In this document: in pieces, positions 34,287 through 40,906 of the stretch | How the letters are laid out: each line of letters starts with the position of its first letter | How positions within the stretch are numbered: the first letter of the stretch is position 1 | Origin: Salinibacter pepae | GTDB lineage: Bacteria > Bacteroidota > Rhodothermia > Rhodothermales > Salinibacteraceae | Direction of reading: 5' to 3' | Assembly: GCF_947077775.1 (NCBI RefSeq) | Contig: NZ_CAMTTE010000001.1 | Location: forward strand, 2,570,501-2,634,500 | Length of the DNA stretch: 64,000 nucleotides | Notes under the pieces: model-generated | The model's input: the letters and a program-made list of their open reading frames with translations, nothing else | What the model was told of the DNA's origin: nothing | Databases searched by the model: none | Made by a program: the position numbers and the translations under genes

Positions 34287-36647
34287 ATGCGCCGCATTCC
34301 GATCCGCCGTTCCACGACCCACACCCAGGTTGACCCCGACCCCGAGGCCGAGCAGCGCATCCTCGACGGGCTCAACGACAAGCAGCGCGAGGCCGTGACG
34401 ACCACCGAGGGGCCGGTCATGATCATCGCCGGGCCCGGCTCCGGCAAGACGCGCGCCCTCACGCACCGCATCGCCTACCTGCTGGCCGCGGGCCAGGCCC
34501 AGCCGCGCGACATCCTGGCCCTCACCTTTACCAACAAGGCGGCCAACGAGATGCAGGAGCGGGTGGAGGCCCTCGTGGGCGACGACGCCCGGGGGATGTG
34601 GGTGGGCACCTTCCACTCCTCCTTCGCCCGCCTGCTGCGGATGGAAGGGGACAAGATCGGCTACTCGGAAGACTTCTCCATCTACGACACCACCGACTCG
34701 AAGCGCCTCATCCGACAGCAGATGAAGGGGCGCAGCCTCGACACCGACGTGGTGAAGCCGCGGTCGGTGCAGCGCATGATCTCCAGCGCCAAGAACGAAA
34801 TGATCGACCCGCAGGAGTACGCGGACCTGGCGCGCGGGGACCAGCAGGAGATCGTCGCGGAGGTCTACCCCGCCTACGAGCGGGCCCTCCAGCAGGCCAA
34901 CGCGCTCGACTTCGACGACCTGCTGCTGAAGCCGATCGAGCTGTTCGAGCAGCACGAGGACGTGCTCGAAAAGTACCAGCGGCGCTGGCAGTACGTCCAC
35001 ATCGACGAGTACCAGGACACGAACCAGGCGCAGTACGTCCTCGCCCGCACCCTGTCCGGCCGCCACAAAAACCTCTGCGTGGTGGGCGACGACGCGCAGA
35101 GCATCTACGCCTTCCGCGGGGCCGACATCACCAACATCCTCAACTTCGACAACGACTACCCGGACGCCACCACGATCCGGCTGGAGCGCAACTACCGCTC
35201 CACCGAGAACATCATCCGCCTGGCCGACTCGATCATCGAGGAGAACGACGACCAGATCGAGAAGAGCCTCTGGACGGACAACGCGGAGGGGGAGTACGTG
35301 GCGCTCATGGAGGCGCTCAGCGAGAAGGACGAGGCGCAAAAGATCGAGCGCCGCGTCCGCGACCTGCACCTGCGCGACGGGATGGAGTACGGCGACTTTG
35401 CGGTCCTCTACCGCACCAACGCCCAGAGCCGGGCCATCGAGGAGGCGCTGCGCAAGGAGAACGTGCCGTACCGCGTGATCGGGGGCACCTCCTTCTACGA
35501 GCGGAAGGAGATCAAGGACGTGCTGGCGTACCTGAAGCTGCTGGTGAACCCGAACGACACGGCCAGCCTGCAGCGCGTCATCAACTACCCCACGCGCGGC
35601 ATCGGCGACAAGACGCAGAAGCGCCTCCAGCGCTACGCCCAGCAGCAGGGCCTCTCGCTCTGGCAGGCCGTGGAGCGGGTGGAGGAGATCGAGACGCTGG
35701 GCACGCGCGCCGAGCGGGCCGTCGGCAAATTTCGACGCCTCATCGCGCGCTGCGCCTCGAAGGCGGGCACCGGCAGCGTGCCGGCCGACGAGCTGGCGCG
35801 CGACCTGATTCAGGACGCCGGCCTGCTCAGCGAGCTGCGCAAGGAGCACACCCGCGAAAACCTGCAGCGCTGGGAGAACGTGCAGGAGCTGATCAGCGCG
35901 CTGGCCGAATACGTCGAGTCCACCGAGGACGCCACGATCAGCACGTTCCTGCAGGAGGTGGCCCTCATGACCGGCCAGGACGAGGCGGAGGGGGGCGGCG
36001 ACAAGGTGACGCTCATGACGCTCCACGCCGCGAAGGGGACCGAATTTCCGGTCGTGTTCGTGGCGGGCCTGGAGGAGGGCCTCTTTCCGCTGGAAAAGGC
36101 GACCCAGGAGAAGGCGGAGCTGGAGGAGGAGCGGCGCCTCTTCTACGTCGGCGTCACGCGGGCGGAGGAGCGCCTCTACCTCAGCTGGGCGCGCAGCCGC
36201 TACCGCTACGGCGAACAGACCTCCAACACGCGCAGCCGCTTCCTGGAGGAGGTCGACTCCGACGTGGTGCGCACCGAGGCGGGCGGCGAGTTGGAGCAGC
36301 AGACCGATCGCTTCTCGGCGGGCGACGGCTCGTCGCAGGACTACGACGAGATGGACCCGCACTACTACCGGCAGGACCTGAGCGGCGACGGCGGGACGAC
36401 CTCCTCGTCGGACGGCCTCCGGCGCATCGAGTCGACCGACGGGGGCGGCGGGCGGCGCGTGGTCTACGACGAGGGGCACGGCGAGATCGTGCCGGGCGCC
36501 CGGGTGGAGCACCAGAAGTTTGGGCGGGGCAAGGTGCAGTCCCTGGAGGGGGAGGGCGACAAGGCCACCGCGGTCGTCTTCTTCGGGTCGGACGTGGGCA
36601 ACAAGAAGCTGAAGCTGAAGTACGCGAATCTTCGGGTTGTGGGGTAA
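34287..36647 (+). CDS. pcrA: ATP-dependent DNA helicase PcrA/UvrD
   Basis: A superfamily 1A 3'-5' helicase of 786 residues, the main UvrD/PcrA of repair and of removal of stalled complexes. Motifs include the Q motif LNDKQREAV (about 29-37), Walker A GPGSGKT (49-55), DEYQDTN, GDDAQSIYAFRGAD, LERNYRSTENI, TLHAAKGTEFPVVF and VGVTRAEERLY. The C-terminus (about 735-786) is the Tudor-like fold seen in PcrA, with VEHQKFGRGKVQSLEG and KKLKLKYANLRVV. In PcrA and UvrD this part contacts RNA polymerase. A divergent paralogue without this fold is at 6619-8757. Confidence 0.95.
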   Translation: MRRIPIRRSTTHTQVDPDPEAEQRILDGLNDKQREAVTTTEGPVMIIAGPGSGKTRALTHRIAYLLAAGQAQPRDILALTFTNKAANEMQERVEALVGDDARGMWVGTFHSSFARLLRMEGDKIGYSEDFSIYDTTDSKRLIRQQMKGRSLDTDVVKPRSVQRMISSAKNEMIDPQEYADLARGDQQEIVAEVYPAYERALQQANALDFDDLLLKPIELFEQHEDVLEKYQRRWQYVHIDEYQDTNQAQYVLARTLSGRHKNLCVVGDDAQSIYAFRGADITNILNFDNDYPDATTIRLERNYRSTENIIRLADSIIEENDDQIEKSLWTDNAEGEYVALMEALSEKDEAQKIERRVRDLHLRDGMEYGDFAVLYRTNAQSRAIEEALRKENVPYRVIGGTSFYERKEIKDVLAYLKLLVNPNDTASLQRVINYPTRGIGDKTQKRLQRYAQQQGLSLWQAVERVEEIETLGTRAERAVGKFRRLIARCASKAGTGSVPADELARDLIQDAGLLSELRKEHTRENLQRWENVQELISALAEYVESTEDATISTFLQEVALMTGQDEAEGGGDKVTLMTLHAAKGTEFPVVFVAGLEEGLFPLEKATQEKAELEEERRLFYVGVTRAEERLYLSWARSRYRYGEQTSNTRSRFLEEVDSDVVRTEAGGELEQQTDRFSAGDGSSQDYDEMDPHYYRQDLSGDGGTTSSSDGLRRIESTDGGGGRRVVYDEGHGEIVPGARVEHQKFGRGKVQSLEGEGDKATAVVFFGSDVGNKKLKLKYANLRVVG

Positions 36648-36717: not shown

Positions 36718-37263
36718 TCAGTTTAGATCGGGGAGGTCGTCCGATCGATAGCTGACGGAGTGCATCTGTCCCTGGTCGTCGATGACGTTGGTCTCCGCGC
36801 CCGGGGCTACGTCGGTATTTTGGGCGGCGACGCAGCGCCAGTCGTCGTCCGTGCGGCGCACCACGAAGGTAAAGATGGTGCGGCGGGGCCGGGGATCGTC
36901 CACCTCGGCCACGGCGGTTTGGCCCTCCAGCTTTATCTTGGCGTGCACGACCGCCACGGCTGGAGTAGTGTCCGCGCCGCCCGCGAGCCACCGGACGCGC
37001 CGCTCTACGAGCGCGATCGTCGACTGGTCGAAGATGGTGCGGAGGCCGTAGTCGTGGGCCTGGCGGATGGCCTCGCGGTCGTGCCACCAGAGCCCGGTCA
37101 CGTTCACGAACTCGGCGTCCTCCGCAAACAGCTCCGCCAGCCGGTCCGCGTCGCGCCGGTTCCAGGCCTCGACCCAGATCTCGGCGATGCGCTTGGGGTG
37201 GTCGAACGGGGGATAAGGATTTTCGGACGGGAGAGATGGATGCCGCACCTGTATGTGGTTCAT
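36718..37263 (-). CDS. SnoaL-like / SgcJ-EcaC family protein
   Basis: A 181-residue protein of the SnoaL-like (NTF2-like) fold. PKRIAEIWVEAWNRRDADRL followed by LFAEDAEFVNVTGLWWHDRE is the family pattern (about residues 23-60). Members are found as small enzymes or as uncharacterised proteins of SgcJ/EcaC type. The catalytic role cannot be read. It begins 46 bases after the methyltransferase-HIT gene on the same strand and may be the third gene of that block. Confidence 0.65.
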   Translation of the reverse strand: MNHIQVRHPSLPSENPYPPFDHPKRIAEIWVEAWNRRDADRLAELFAEDAEFVNVTGLWWHDREAIRQAHDYGLRTIFDQSTIALVERRVRWLAGGADTTPAVAVVHAKIKLEGQTAVAEVDDPRPRRTIFTFVVRRTDDDWRCVAAQNTDVAPGAETNVIDDQGQMHSVSYRSDDLPDLN

Positions 37264-37309
37264 CGTGGGACGTACGTCGTTTCCCTGACGTGTTTGGAGA
37301 CGCGGGGCT

Positions 37310-38107
37310 TCACAACGGAACGACGTGCAGGTGGGCATGCTCGACGGTTTTCGGGGCCGGCTGGTCGAGGTTGAGTCCCACCCGGAAGATGTTGGATGCC
37401 CCCTGTTCGCGCAGCATGCGTTGGGCACGGTTCACCAGCAGCCAGCACGCCCGTTGCTCGCGCTCGGCGAGGTCGAAATAGTTGATCACGTGTCGCTTGG
37501 GGAGCACGAGAGTATGTCCGTCAGCGGCGGAATCGTCGTTTCTCACCGCTACGGACTGCGCGGACTCCGAGACCAGCGTCGTTTCTGATGGTGGATTGCA
37601 GAGCACACAGTCGGTCTCGGGGTCGGAGGGGCGCTGCGGGTACGGGCGATACTGATAGATCTCGCAGAACTCGGTGCGCACGACGGTCTCGTACGGCAGG
37701 CCCACGTTGGTCTGATAGGTCGGGACGTTATGCTTGTAGTGCTGGCGGTACCCGGTGCGCTGAAGGTCCCGGCGGACCGTGTAGAAGGCAGTACCATCGG
37801 GGCGTAGCAATTCAGACACGTCCATCAGCACGTCCGTCTGTTCCCGCTGAAGCAAGACGTTGAGGACGTAGTGGCACAGGATGGTGTCGAACGTGCCGTC
37901 CGGGCGTTCCGGGGCGTAGTGGGGATCGTAGCCCTCAACCTCAACCCCCTTCTCGCGCAGAAAGTCAACGTCGGCCCCATGCCCACAGCCGTAGTCGAGC
38001 ACGCGACCCTCGATGTGGCCGAGCCCGAGGAGCTTGCGGGTGGGAAAGGAGGGCCGGTCCCGCTCCTTCGCTGTAAGGTGCGCGTATGGATTTTGGCGGC
38101 GGGGCAC
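37310..38107 (-). CDS. Methyltransferase-HIT domain fusion protein
   Basis: A 265-residue two-domain protein. Residues 1-160 are a class I SAM-dependent methyltransferase with motif I VLDYGCGHGADVDFL (36-50). Residues 161-265 are a HIT domain with CVLC (Cys 167 and Cys 170, a zinc site), GHTLVLPKRHV (197-207) and the histidine triad HAHLHVV (257-263) very close to the C-terminus. HIT proteins bind nucleotides and hydrolyse nucleoside-phosphate adducts, such as AMP from adenylated molecules. The upstream gene is a methyltransferase-HNH fusion, 52 bases away, so the two are probably one operon. The substrate is unknown. Confidence 0.75.
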   Translation of the reverse strand: MPRRQNPYAHLTAKERDRPSFPTRKLLGLGHIEGRVLDYGCGHGADVDFLREKGVEVEGYDPHYAPERPDGTFDTILCHYVLNVLLQREQTDVLMDVSELLRPDGTAFYTVRRDLQRTGYRQHYKHNVPTYQTNVGLPYETVVRTEFCEIYQYRPYPQRPSDPETDCVLCNPPSETTLVSESAQSVAVRNDDSAADGHTLVLPKRHVINYFDLAEREQRACWLLVNRAQRMLREQGASNIFRVGLNLDQPAPKTVEHAHLHVVPL

Positions 38108-38158
38108 GAGAGTTAGGGACCCAGTGACGGTGAGGCCGGTCGGGAGAGTTGGATGATG

Positions 38159-39826
38159 CTACTCCGCGCTCCACTCGGCAATTTGCTGGTCCGTCCGAAG
38201 TCGAACGCGTTGGCGTCGGAGACCAGTTAGAAGATCGTCAAGCGTGGTCTCGTCCGATCGGAGCGGGAGCGCCGCATTCGCCTCCTCGTAGAACCGGGGC
38301 TCGTAGCGGGTTTTCTGGTAGGCTCGGTGCCACCAGTCCTGTATGCGATCGGCGGCTGCTTCCACCTGCTGTGCCGAGGGAAGACGATCGGACTTCTCTG
38401 CGTTCAACTGCGATGACGCTGGCAGCAAGTTCCAAAGATGGTTGTTCGGCCAGTGCTTGAAGGGGAAACAGTGGTCAATTTCGTATCCGCTGTTTAGGCG
38501 TTCTCCGGACCACACGCAGTACAGAGGTTCTCCTGACTGCTGGAGCTGTATGGCCAGTTTGCGGACTTCCTGGGTTGAATGCTCCACGTTGGGCCAGGCT
38601 AGTGCATCGCGGTACGCACCGGGGGACGCAGTGCCGTCGTAGGTTTCGAGCAACTCCACCCAGCGGCTCAAAATGGACGGTTCGATCCAACTGGCGTGCC
38701 GAGCGAGTGCATCCCATACATGTCGGGGCACGCGAAGCGTCCCCACCGTACGTAGGAATTCGAGGTCGAGGGTGAGTTCATCTGACGAACGGATGTGCCC
38801 ACTTCCATACTCAAATACCTGATCGCTCGTCCCTGGGTAGGTGATGAAGTGAGCAGGCCCCTCCCGGATGGTGTCTCGAATGGTCCGGAACGTCTCGATG
38901 AGGTGGCGGGCCTCGTCCCCAGTAAAGCGCCGACCGAGCCGAAAGTCCGACTCAGAAAGCCGCCGCAGAAATTGAAAGTGTTCGTCGTCAAAGGCGGGGG
39001 GGCCATTTCCCGGGGGCATTTGGTGATATCCCCGATTCAGAATGAGCCAACGATACATGCGCAGCCAATACAGCGCTACCATCCCAAGGGGAATATCCAC
39101 GTGGTCCTGGGTTTCCTCCAAGACGGCGCCCTTCGCGTTATCGGCCACCCGGAGGATGGAGCGCAGCAGGGCAGGCTTATAGGTGGCGGATGTGTTGTCG
39201 TTGATTAGAATATGTCGGATCAGCGGCAGGGCGCCGGTGCCGTCGTCCGGCAGTCGGAAGACGACCGTTGTCCATTCCAGGGCTCGATCCAACTGGTCGT
39301 CAGTTTGCGTCGCGTCCAGGAGCTCGAGTGCGAAAGAACGTGACAGATCGCGCAGTTCAGACGTCGAGGTTTCGTAGGCCGTGCGATTGCCATCCGGCAG
39401 TTCGGAGCGGAGCGTAATGACGAGGTGGCCGCCGGGCTTGAGGCGTTCCGTGAGCTTGCGGAAAGCGCGCTCTCGCTCCGAGGGAGGAACGTGCATCCAG
39501 ACGGCACTCAGCAGGATGACGTCGAACGTGTAGTCGAGATCGTGGACGGCGTCCAGCGCCGGAAGCTGGTCGTCGAGCCACTGAATGCGGGGAGACGGAT
39601 GTCTCTCCTGAGCGCGCTTCCGCAGTGCGTCTGCAGGCTCGACCGCAACTACCTCATGATCTTGATCCGCAAACCAGGCGGCGTCGCGGCCCGATCCTGC
39701 TCCCACGTCGAGCACCAGAAGCTGCGTGCTTGGAAGCAAGGGGAGCCAGTCGCCATGCACCACTTCGGTATCAGTACGCTCGTAGCGTCGAAAAAAGTCG
39801 TTGGGCCGCTGTTTATACGCGGACAT
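38159..39826 (-). CDS. Methyltransferase-HNH nuclease fusion protein
   Basis: A 555-residue protein. Residues about 1-200 are a class I SAM-dependent methyltransferase with motif I VLDVGAGSGRDAAWFA (38-53) and post-motif LSAVWMHVP. A middle region includes NDNTSATYKPALLRSILRVA (209-228), resembling the TSTYKFALL segment that precedes the nuclease in some HNH restriction-like proteins. Near the C-terminus is an HNH motif: CVWSG (437-441), YEIDHCFPF (Asp 451, His 452), NNHLWNLLP (Asn 466) and NAEKSDRLP (475-483). The whole could methylate and cut nucleic acid. It is the first gene of a block with the methyltransferase-HIT gene. The specificity is unknown. Confidence 0.75.
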   Translation of the reverse strand: MSAYKQRPNDFFRRYERTDTEVVHGDWLPLLPSTQLLVLDVGAGSGRDAAWFADQDHEVVAVEPADALRKRAQERHPSPRIQWLDDQLPALDAVHDLDYTFDVILLSAVWMHVPPSERERAFRKLTERLKPGGHLVITLRSELPDGNRTAYETSTSELRDLSRSFALELLDATQTDDQLDRALEWTTVVFRLPDDGTGALPLIRHILINDNTSATYKPALLRSILRVADNAKGAVLEETQDHVDIPLGMVALYWLRMYRWLILNRGYHQMPPGNGPPAFDDEHFQFLRRLSESDFRLGRRFTGDEARHLIETFRTIRDTIREGPAHFITYPGTSDQVFEYGSGHIRSSDELTLDLEFLRTVGTLRVPRHVWDALARHASWIEPSILSRWVELLETYDGTASPGAYRDALAWPNVEHSTQEVRKLAIQLQQSGEPLYCVWSGERLNSGYEIDHCFPFKHWPNNHLWNLLPASSQLNAEKSDRLPSAQQVEAAADRIQDWWHRAYQKTRYEPRFYEEANAALPLRSDETTLDDLLTGLRRQRVRLRTDQQIAEWSAE

Positions 39827-40066
39827 CGGCTATAAATGGGCGTTATCGAGCGATGCCTCCAAGTAGCGAAACGGTGCCGTAATCGGCGCACGCCAGCGCT
39901 ATGTGGCGGACATCGCAATTATTTTTCGGGATGTGAAACTAAAAAAACAAAGTACGGGCCGTGGGTTCAAGTTTTGGCACCGATTGACAGAGAGACTCCG
40001 GGGAGATGCAGCACCCACACGCCCCGATCCGCCGCTCTGCGCTCCGCGGAGGGCCCGACCGCGGCC
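39827..40066. other. AT-richer gap upstream of the methyltransferase-HNH gene
   Basis: About 240 bases between dat and the methyltransferase-HNH gene, both on the minus strand. The part at about 39900-39965 is clearly more AT-rich than the surroundings, with a T7 run on the minus strand. A promoter for the fusion gene could lie here, but no clear -35/-10 pair is seen. Confidence 0.35.
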
Positions 40067-40906
40067 CTACGCCGGCTCCAGCGCCCGAAAGGCCTCCAGC
40101 AGCTCCTGCGCCACGGGCCCCGGCGTGCCGTCGCCCACCGTCCAGTCGTCCACCTGCACGATCGGCATGATGCCCGTCGTGGTGCCCATCAGAAACAGCT
40201 CGTCGGCCTCGGGCAGGGCGTCGACGGCCACGGGAAACTCCTCCACGGGACGGCCCAGGGCGTCGCACAGCTCCAGCATCACGGTGCGCGTGATGCTCGG
40301 CAGGGTGCGGTTCGTGAAGGGGTGGACCGTCACGGTGCCGTCGAACACGGCCGCCATGCTGGAGTGGCTGCCCTCCGTCACGAACCCGTCGCGCACCAGC
40401 AGCGCCTCGTAGGCCCCGGCCTCCTGGGCGGCCTGGTTGGCGAGGACATTGGGGAGGTAGTTGAGCGACTTGATGTCGCAGCGGGCCCAGCGCTGGTCGG
40501 GCCGCAGGATCACCGCCACGCCGTTGCGCCACTTCTCAAGCGGCGGCTCGTGGGCCTCGGCACGGGCGTAGACGGTCGGCTCGGGGGGCGGGTCGGGAAA
40601 GGCGTGCTGGCGCGGCGCGGCCCCGCGGGTGACCTGCAGGTACACCTTTGCGGGGCCCGCGTCCAGGCCGTTGCGGGGCAGCAGCCCGCGGACGCGCTCC
40701 CAGAGGGCGTCGGGGTCGACATCGTGCAGCCGAATGGCCTCCAGGCTGCGGGCGAGGCGCCGGCGGTGGTCGGCAAGCCGAAACAGCCGCCCGTCCTCGG
40801 CGCGGGCCACCTCGTAGACCCCGTCCCCAAACACGAACCCCCGGTCGTCGGGGGAGATGGACACGTCCGCCTTGTCCATGTAGCTGCCGTTGAAGTAGAC
40901 CGTCAT
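40067..40906 (-). CDS. dat: D-amino-acid aminotransferase
   Basis: A class IV PLP aminotransferase of 279 residues that fits D-alanine transaminase, which makes D-glutamate and D-alanine for peptidoglycan. Signature segments are DDRGFVFGDGVYEV (about 20-33), YLQVTRGAAPRQHAFP (about 86-101) and RWARCDIKSLNYLP (about 137-150), whose lysine binds PLP. RWxRCDIKSLN and VTRGxxPRxH are characteristic of D-amino-acid rather than branched-chain aminotransferases. It is divergent from the DUF2007 gene. Confidence 0.9.
   Translation of the reverse strand: MTVYFNGSYMDKADVSISPDDRGFVFGDGVYEVARAEDGRLFRLADHRRRLARSLEAIRLHDVDPDALWERVRGLLPRNGLDAGPAKVYLQVTRGAAPRQHAFPDPPPEPTVYARAEAHEPPLEKWRNGVAVILRPDQRWARCDIKSLNYLPNVLANQAAQEAGAYEALLVRDGFVTEGSHSSMAAVFDGTVTVHPFTNRTLPSITRTVMLELCDALGRPVEEFPVAVDALPEADELFLMGTTTGIMPIVQVDDWTVGDGTPGPVAQELLEAFRALEPA

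What the first reader, a model, noticed from the sequence alone, without database searches (positions are those of the whole stretch)
37310..39826. Two-gene block: methyltransferase-HNH nuclease and methyltransferase-HIT
Seen: two adjacent minus-strand genes, 52 bases apart, each begin with a class I SAM methyltransferase domain. The first ends with an HNH nuclease motif (DH at 451-452, Asn 466) after a TSATYKPALL segment. The second ends with a zinc-type HIT domain (CVLC, HAHLHVV). Known: HNH domains cut nucleic acids, HIT domains hydrolyse nucleotide adducts, and methyltransferases can mark self. Inference: a modification/cleavage system with a nucleotide-processing arm, perhaps antiviral or RNA-directed. 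The block is flanked by an AT-richer gap and a SnoaL-like gene, which suits an acquired module.
Basis: partly seen in the sequence, partly recalled or inferred. Interest (0 to 1): 0.8.

Follow-up and report, generated by a model that had tools for sequence, protein, structure and literature searches.

The report
Swappable nuclease with methyltransferase-HIT partner
Two neighbouring bacterial genes form what looks like a transferable DNA-defence module, in which a small two-domain helper enzyme stays constant while the DNA-cutting enzyme beside it is repeatedly exchanged, and some of the exchanged cutters are tied to sulfur-marked DNA.

Summary
The two genes are real: a methyltransferase(MT)-'TYK'-HNH nuclease (38159-39826, minus) and an MT-HIT protein (37310-38107, minus). 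That exact pair was seen in only two genomes, but MT-HIT is no chance neighbour: 21 of 21 MT-HIT loci have an HNH gene beside it, against 0 of 30 ordinary HIT loci. The nuclease is swapped while MT-HIT stays: 8 changes of nuclease type on a 19-row MT-HIT tree and three replacements visible at DNA level. One exchangeable type is the SBD-HNH, the family of phosphorothioate(PT)-DNA-dependent restriction enzymes, which also fills the window's site in sister genomes. A related TYK-HNH type lies in or against Ssp phosphorothioation loci in two genomes and in four of six plasmids read, some picked for that reason. The MT of MT-HIT resembles TIGR04096, the 'DNA phosphorothioation-associated' methyltransferase. 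Best reading: a mobile restriction module, perhaps directed at phosphorothioate-related DNA, with MT-HIT as accessory enzyme. Target and MT-HIT chemistry are inferred. The paper searches made found no description. Base-methylating R-M and RNA-guided readings are not supported.

The parts
38159..39826 (-). MT-TYK-HNH protein, 555 aa: class I SAM methyltransferase (aa about 36-150), TYK region (aa about 200-430), HNH_4 nuclease (aa about 437-500)
39161..39190 (-). TYK motif S-A-T-Y-K-P-A-L-L-R (aa 213-222); Y216 and K217 invariant in the 16-row alignment; looks like the H/Y-K-P-x-L-L motif of SBD domains, relation unproven
38378..38518 (-). HNH core (aa 437-483): C437, D451, H452, N466, N475
37310..38107 (-). 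MT-HIT protein, 265 aa: TIGR04096-like methyltransferase (aa about 10-155) plus HIT domain (aa about 167-264) without the usual C-terminal tail
37325..37339 (-). histidine triad H257-A-H259-L-H261
37227..40069 (.). variable segment of the uvrD/SnoaL/aminotransferase site: other genes in sister genomes, absent in G004
36718..37242 (-). flank: SnoaL-like gene, also found in G003, G005 (part) and G006
34287..36647 (+). flank: UvrD-type helicase
   Evidence: name from reading the sequence, the window copy was not put to a family search
40067..40906 (-). flank: class IV aminotransferase

Best explanation
The block is a horizontally exchanged restriction module. The HNH protein is the effector: a TYK-HNH nuclease that cuts DNA chosen by its N-terminal region. 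The most likely trigger is phosphorothioated, or otherwise backbone-marked, incoming DNA; the host itself has no DndC or SspC match. MT-HIT is a dedicated accessory enzyme that is kept when the nuclease is swapped. I infer that its HIT domain hydrolyses nucleotide products or end adducts left by cleavage of such DNA (for example nucleoside 5'-thiophosphates) and that its MT acts on the same substrate. Shown: anatomy, linkage, partner swapping, a site shared with SBD-HNH genes, and a related TYK-HNH type in Ssp loci. Inferred: the DNA target, PT dependence and the MT-HIT reaction.
For: MT-HIT/HNH adjacency in 21 of 21 loci against 0 of 30 ordinary HIT loci (the HNH profiles were partly built from these neighbours, and the 30 are the best-scoring PF01230 loci of 41 relatives). 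HIT without MT: HNH beside or fused in 8 of 13 phylum loci and beside it in 4 of 6 plasmid loci read out of 10 records; an HNH-HIT fusion behind an McrC gene in G086. Swaps: 8 changes on 19 rows with 5 states; window/G006, G231/G294 and G363/G377 with G323 at DNA level. SBD-HNH partners of MT-HIT in G020, G021 and G363 (NF045808 at 103.7, 144 and 88.7 bits, all under the cut-off of 180; their profile hits the SBD structure 8h0l at 1e-22). The window's site holds SBD-HNH in G003 (two) and G005 (363 bits, over the cut-off). TYK-HNH of type A4 in PT loci: G338 with a DndA/SspA-type desulfurase, SspB, SspC, SspD; plasmids of Hymenobacter yonginensis, Synechocystis, Cyanobacterium HL-69 and Geminocystis; G353 behind SspB and a short SspC. 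MT of MT-HIT matches part of TIGR04096 and the TIGR04096 protein near the pSYSM locus. HINT1, a HIT enzyme, releases H2S from nucleoside thiophosphates (PMC8775712).
Against: The window's own TYK type was not seen in a PT locus; the PT loci carry type A4. A3 and A4 are alike over HNH plus N-terminal region (98.6%), but with the N-terminal parts alone the probability is only 12%. TYK against SBD is not significant. Three of the six plasmid loci were picked knowing that the record or organism also had an SspC match. Other TYK-HNH plasmid loci read (L148, L154, L155) and five MT-HNH plasmid loci show no Ssp genes in their annotation. None of 16 MT-HIT genomes of the 394-genome sample has DndC, 2 of 16 have an SspC match. 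TIGR04096 was not found in the 12 DndC genomes. In G338 the nuclease lies beside its own PT genes, which a simple 'cuts PT DNA' model does not explain. G353 SspC is short (673 aa; the other 19 matches lie in frames of 1063-1208 aa), so that locus may be a broken operon. The window HIT domain lacks its tail and changes faster than its MT. The odds were lowered from 0.5 to 0.45 on re-reading because of the 12% and the picking of plasmids.
Confidence: 0.45

Rival explanations
1. A mobile restriction nuclease family aimed at other DNA (modified bases, or unmodified foreign DNA). The PT link comes from defence islands that collect HNH genes of many kinds. MT-HIT is a general helper.
For: McrBC-type genes lie near some copies: G363, G086, a Roseomonas plasmid with MT-HNH. 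Most MT-HIT loci read show no PT genes; MT-HIT genomes of the sample lack DndC.
Against: TYK-HNH of type A4 lies in or against Ssp genes in G338, G353 and 4 of 6 plasmid loci read. SBD-HNH enter the same partner slot and the same site.
Confidence: 0.3
2. Toxin and guard: the HNH is a self-harming effector, and MT-HIT or the fused MT keeps it in check by modifying it or by clearing a signal nucleotide, as was hypothesised in print for the HIT protein ThsC of Thoeris type II.
For: MT and HIT are found beside HNH in several combinations. HIT as off-switch was hypothesised for ThsC (PMC8565338, passage).
Against: HNH-HIT fusions, TYK-HNH with neither partner on plasmids, and the same MT-HIT serving nucleases of unrelated types.
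Confidence: 0.12
3. Type II-like restriction-modification: the MTs methylate host DNA bases against the HNH.
For: MT and HNH in one protein.
Against: Best families are Methyltransf_25/11/12/23 and part of TIGR04096; no DNA methylase family is listed. The region FDVILLSAVWMHVPP has no [SDN]PP[FYW] motif (sequence reading; the motif is given in PMC10853773).
Confidence: 0.05

Closest known systems
Phosphorothioate-dependent SBD-HNH enzymes, ScoMcrA kin (NF045808)
   Same: HNH nuclease with an N-terminal DNA-reading region; SBD-HNH occupy the same MT-HIT partner slot and the same genomic site in sister genomes
   Different: The window protein has no detectable SBD and carries a fused MT; HNH subfamily differs (HNH_4 here, HNH_2 in the one SBD-HNH put to Pfam)
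Ssp phosphorothioation loci (SspABCD with SspE or SspFGH)
   Same: A related TYK-HNH type lies in or against such loci
   Different: The window genome has no SspC or DndC match; the nuclease matched no SspE or SspF-H profile in PADLOC where tested
DNA phosphorothioation-associated putative methyltransferase (TIGR04096)
   Same: N-terminal MT region matches in both directions (56 bits; 53 bits to the pSYSM protein)
   Different: Far below the family cut-off of 150 bits; only model positions 5-89 of 478; fused to HIT instead
HINT/FHIT-type histidine triad hydrolases
   Same: HIT domain and triad
   Different: Fused to an MT, tied to nucleases, tail missing in window and G008
ThsC, HIT protein of Thoeris type II
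   Same: HIT domain in a defence context (29 bits)
   Different: Partner beside it is an HNH nuclease; no Thoeris gene recognised among the direct neighbours

Membership tests
Phosphorothioate-dependent SBD-HNH restriction enzyme (NF045808) | HNH nuclease domain | tested here: met
   HNH_4 25.7 bits over cut-off 22
Phosphorothioate-dependent SBD-HNH restriction enzyme (NF045808) | Sulfur-binding domain | tested here: not met
   NF045808 not among the 25 of 27 families shown at E up to 1; hhalign TYK against SBD not significant
Phosphorothioate-dependent SBD-HNH restriction enzyme (NF045808) | PT-dependent cleavage | not testable with these tools
   needs biochemistry
Ssp defence system | SspABCD genes in or near the locus | tested here: not met
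   window genome: no SspC match, no DndC; met for the related HNH of G338
TIGR04096 dnd_rel_methyl | score over curated cut-off, full length | tested here: not met
   56 of 150 bits, model positions 5-89 of 478
HIT hydrolase | H-x-H-x-H triad | tested here: met
   H257, H259, H261
HIT hydrolase | complete domain with the tail of the other MT-HIT copies | tested here: not met
   window and G008 end after the triad
HIT hydrolase | hydrolase activity | not testable with these tools
   needs biochemistry
Type II restriction-modification | DNA base methyltransferase | tested here: not met
   no DNA methylase family listed
Thoeris type II | ThsA and ThsB beside the HIT gene | tested here: not met
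   direct neighbours are HNH, SnoaL-like, UvrD-type and aminotransferase genes; the rest of the genome was not searched
Cas9 / RNA-guided nuclease | RuvC domain and guide RNA | tested here: inconclusive
   only HNH-region similarity; no RuvC family among those listed; no guide-RNA search was made

The most novel reading that the evidence does not exclude
MT-HIT is a phosphorothioate-processing enzyme: it desulfurises and/or S-methylates PT nucleotides or PT DNA ends released by its nuclease partner (HIT: thiophosphate to phosphate plus sulfide; MT: methylation of the sulfur). TYK-HNH would then be a second PT-reading nuclease family beside SBD-HNH, and the pair a complete PT capture-and-clean-up system in PT-free hosts.
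Probability: 0.15. Interest if true: 0.9.

Novelty: new variant of a known kind. Interest (0 to 1): 0.72.

Why it matters
If right, phosphorothioate biology has a further nuclease family (TYK-HNH), in Ssp loci and in free-standing modules, plus an enzyme (MT-HIT) that is preserved while its nuclease is exchanged. A conserved accessory with interchangeable effectors is the reverse of the usual picture and points to a chemical step that each of these nucleases needs. Both the PT link and the MT-HIT reaction can be tested with small proteins.

Tried and rejected
Structure prediction of MT-HNH with two sequences (window and L033) failed (mean pLDDT 37.6), so no fold search was run; the second job was not used. 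Viral-contig scans: MT-HNH no relative, type A3 one, type A4 none, SBD-HNH eight, matched in the HNH part, without an MT-HIT match nearby, type A6 five, of which four have an MT gene directly behind the HNH (in L167 the HNH is split over two frames). The MT-HIT scan gave 33 relatives matched in the MT part; of the seven put to the MT-HIT profile none showed a HIT part. The 80-aa ORFs upstream of TYK-HNH in Nostoc, Leptolyngbya and Deinococcus are unlike each other on reading, so no conserved partner. DndC: 12 of 394 genomes, none of the 16 with MT-HIT, about 0.5 expected, so no signal. TIGR04096 in DndC genomes: 0 of 12. SspC match at E <= 1e-20: 20 of 394, 2 of them with MT-HIT. The idea that TYK is an SBD was dropped as unproven: a motif in register only, hhalign probability 0.3-6.4% against 0.1-0.2% for three unrelated controls. 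The genome search could not be centred on another phylum; other phyla were seen only through the plasmid, phage and viral collections and one genome-contig scan that gave one locus, so they are sampled thinly.
Full report
What is there. Two minus-strand genes lie 51 bases apart. The upstream one (38159-39826) is a class I methyltransferase, a middle region with the motif SATYKPALLR (here called TYK), and an HNH_4 nuclease. The downstream one (37310-38107) is a methyltransferase plus a HIT domain. The HNH residues D451, H452, N466 and N475 are invariant in 10 full-length MT-HNH and in a 16-row TYK-HNH alignment; the steps of 14 and 23 residues from H452 equal those I recall for Cas9 H840, N854, N863. 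The closest solved structures by sequence are Cas9 HNH domains, in or around the HNH part. The HIT triad is present, but the window and G008 copies end right after it. Against G008 both genes look selected, with dS near saturation.

Distribution. Among 148 relatives (window included), 10 genomes have a full-length MT-HNH. Two of them (window, G008) have MT-HIT beside it; the other eight have no MT-HIT match at E <= 1e-10. The exact pair is therefore rare. MT-HIT, however, was not found alone. Of 21 MT-HIT loci (16 full-length ones from 394 phylum genomes, window included, and five more from the relatives, two of them cut by contig ends), 21 have an HNH gene beside them: 20 upstream on the same strand and one (G021) divergent. 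The same profiles found no HNH within 1.5 kb of 30 ordinary HIT genes, the best-scoring PF01230 loci of 41 relatives. The profiles were partly built from these very neighbours; Pfam finds HNH independently in those MT-HIT neighbours it was given. HIT without MT shows the same bond: HNH beside or fused in 8 of 13 phylum loci and beside it in 4 of 6 plasmid loci read out of 10 records (one of the four is annotated hypothetical and was placed by alignment). Five plasmid loci of full-length MT-HNH were read: no HIT gene is annotated there; one lies near mcrC and one has an HNH gene nearby whose HNH part matches NF045808 at 49 bits.

The nuclease is exchanged, MT-HIT stays. The HNH neighbours fall into types: MT-TYK (window, G008), TYK a (G135, G139, G323, G377, G366, G385, G294), TYK b (G132, G165, G188, G231, G291, G307, G353), a third TYK type (G006, G026), and SBD-HNH (G020, G021, G363). 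Profile comparison relates A3 (MT-TYK, TYK a and the third type) to A4 (TYK b) at 98.6% and to A6 (a plasmid type) at 98.8%. With the N-terminal parts alone the figures are 12% for A3/A4 and 94.6% for A3/A6. SBD-HNH are not detectably related to A3. On a tree of 19 MT-HIT proteins (the two cut copies left out) the HNH type changes at least 8 times with 5 states. Three replacements are visible at DNA level. Window and G006 share both flanks and MT-HIT (74%) but no nuclease DNA similarity. G231 and G294 share 5.3 kb of upstream flank (78%) and MT-HIT (74.5%) but not the nuclease. G363 shares with G377 and G323 only a leader of 66-77 bases and MT-HIT (82-83%), with an SBD-HNH between them where the others have TYK-HNH; its wider surroundings differ, so this is a swap inside the cassette, not at one chromosomal site.

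The site. In the genus the uvrD/SnoaL/aminotransferase site could be read in six genomes. Window: MT-HIT and MT-HNH. G006: MT-HIT and another HNH. G003, the most alike of those compared: two SBD-HNH genes in tandem; the first scores 142 bits for NF045808 (under the cut-off of 180), the second was not scanned but is 77% alike in DNA to that of G005. G005: an SBD-HNH of 363 bits, over the cut-off; the uvrD side is not seen there. G004: nothing. G007: other genes. In G001, G008, G010, G011 and G012 the aminotransferase was found but its surroundings could not be compared; in G009 they were not fetched, and G002 has no match. The G008 pair lies on another contig.

Phosphorothioation. SBD-HNH are known PT-dependent restriction enzymes; sulfur is contacted by H116 and R117 (lysine in most homologues), followed by P118, L120 and L121 (PMC6224610, passages). 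The A5 profile hits the SBD structure 8h0l at 1e-22. The TYK b type lies against or inside Ssp-type loci. In G338 the HNH abuts a cysteine desulfurase (DndA 450.6, SspA 448.4 bits), followed by SspB, SspC and, further on, SspD; no MT-HIT was found in that genome. On plasmids, 6 of 16 records with a match were read: Hymenobacter yonginensis (HNH, cysteine desulfurase, DUF4007, SspC match, PAPS reductase), Synechocystis PCC 6803 pSYSM (DUF4007, HNH, then a cysteine desulfurase and further on the TIGR04096 methyltransferase), Cyanobacterium HL-69 (DUF4007, SspC match, HNH, PAPS reductase) and Geminocystis (HNH, PAPS reductase, DndB) have PT genes; Allochromatium and Nostoc CENA543 do not in their annotation. 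Three of the six (Hymenobacter, Synechocystis, HL-69) were read knowing that the record or organism also had an SspC match, so 4 of 6 is not an unbiased rate. All six HNH match the A4 profile at 266-386 bits. DUF4007 = SspB is stated in PMC12839542 (passages). In G353, MT-HIT and its HNH follow SspB and an SspC of 673 aa; the other 19 SspC matches of the phylum lie in frames of 1063-1208 aa, so the cassette may have broken the operon. The MT of MT-HIT matches TIGR04096 in 10 of 10 MT-HIT genomes put to that search, at 38.7-58.7 bits, below the cut-off of 150, and the MT-HIT profile finds the pSYSM TIGR04096 protein at about 1e-17.

Other surroundings. Ten large flanking genes from nine MT-HIT or HIT loci, picked by hand, were scanned. 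Restriction or defence-type matches: L039 (type II restriction-like HATPase), L040 (helicases), L122 (cytosine-5 DNA methylase), L124 (AAA and McrBC genes), L132 (SspC), L134 (weak, HNH profile). None of that kind: L041, L125 (ribonucleotide reductase), L130 (amine oxidase type).

Results that cut the other way. TYK and SBD share a short motif in register but no significant profile similarity. No MT-HIT genome of the sample has DndC (0 of 16; 12 of 394 overall). Two of 16 have an SspC match (G231, elsewhere in its genome, and G353). TIGR04096 was not found in the 12 DndC genomes. The window's own TYK type was not seen in a PT locus; plasmid loci of the third TYK type in Nostoc, Leptolyngbya and Deinococcus show no Ssp genes in their annotation, though the Nostoc one lies beside an SBD-HNH (119.7 bits). 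The G338 nuclease sits with its own PT genes, where an enzyme that simply cuts PT DNA would be harmful; SspE is described as relying on PT in host DNA (PMC9646914, abstract in a search listing), so such a nuclease may tell marked from unmarked DNA in another way. The structure prediction failed.

Mechanism. Commitment: the HNH protein is the effector of a mobile restriction module, most likely reading phosphorothioate-related DNA in a host without DndC or SspC match; MT-HIT is its accessory enzyme. HINT1 converts nucleoside 5'-thiophosphates to nucleotides with release of H2S (PMC8775712, abstract and passages), a plausible reaction for the HIT arm. The MT of MT-HNH also passes the Pfam cut-off for thiopurine S-methyltransferase (28.7 against 26 bits, behind better-scoring general MT families), a faint hint towards sulfur as acceptor. 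The tail loss and faster change of the HIT domain in the two genomes whose HNH carries its own MT (HIT minus MT identity -0.19 on average over 34 pairs with one of the two, against -0.05 over 136 other pairs) suggest a relaxed need for HIT there. These steps are inference.

Literature. Searches with HIT, histidine triad, HNH, methyltransferase, restriction, defence and phosphorothioation terms found one paper with HIT and HNH together, PADLOC (PMC8565338, passages), which hypothesises a role of HIT ThsC in Thoeris type II. The main text of PMC7461809 and of PMC10853773 held no HIT or histidine (triad) term; PMC12839542 held 'hit' four times, and the three shown were CD-HIT and 'top hit'. A phrase search for the TIGR04096 name found one genome paper, seen only as a listing. 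Supplements were not read and the library holds open-access papers only, so 'not described' is limited to these searches.

Noticed in passing
L232:5034-6983 (G003): Two SBD-HNH genes in tandem at the window's site in a close relative.
   Followed up: partly
L043:3069-4040 (G086): HNH-HIT fusion directly behind an McrC gene (PF10117) and an AAA gene read as McrB; further HNH-HIT fusions in G173 (L136) and G044 (L145).
   Followed up: partly
L164-L167: Viral contigs with an HNH of the A6 type followed at once by a separate methyltransferase gene.
   Followed up: partly
L089:3795-8420: Viral-contig protein of 1541 aa ending in a methyltransferase akin to that of MT-HIT (E 2.6e-29).
   Followed up: no
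L148:3794-6188: Nostoc plasmid with SBD-HNH and TYK-HNH genes back to back.
   Followed up: no
L036:9599-10064 (G009): Broken MT-HNH remnant at another site of a sister genome.
   Followed up: no
L275:5423-6379: LAGLIDADG endonuclease gene inside the DUF4007/HNH region of Synechocystis pSYSM.
   Followed up: no
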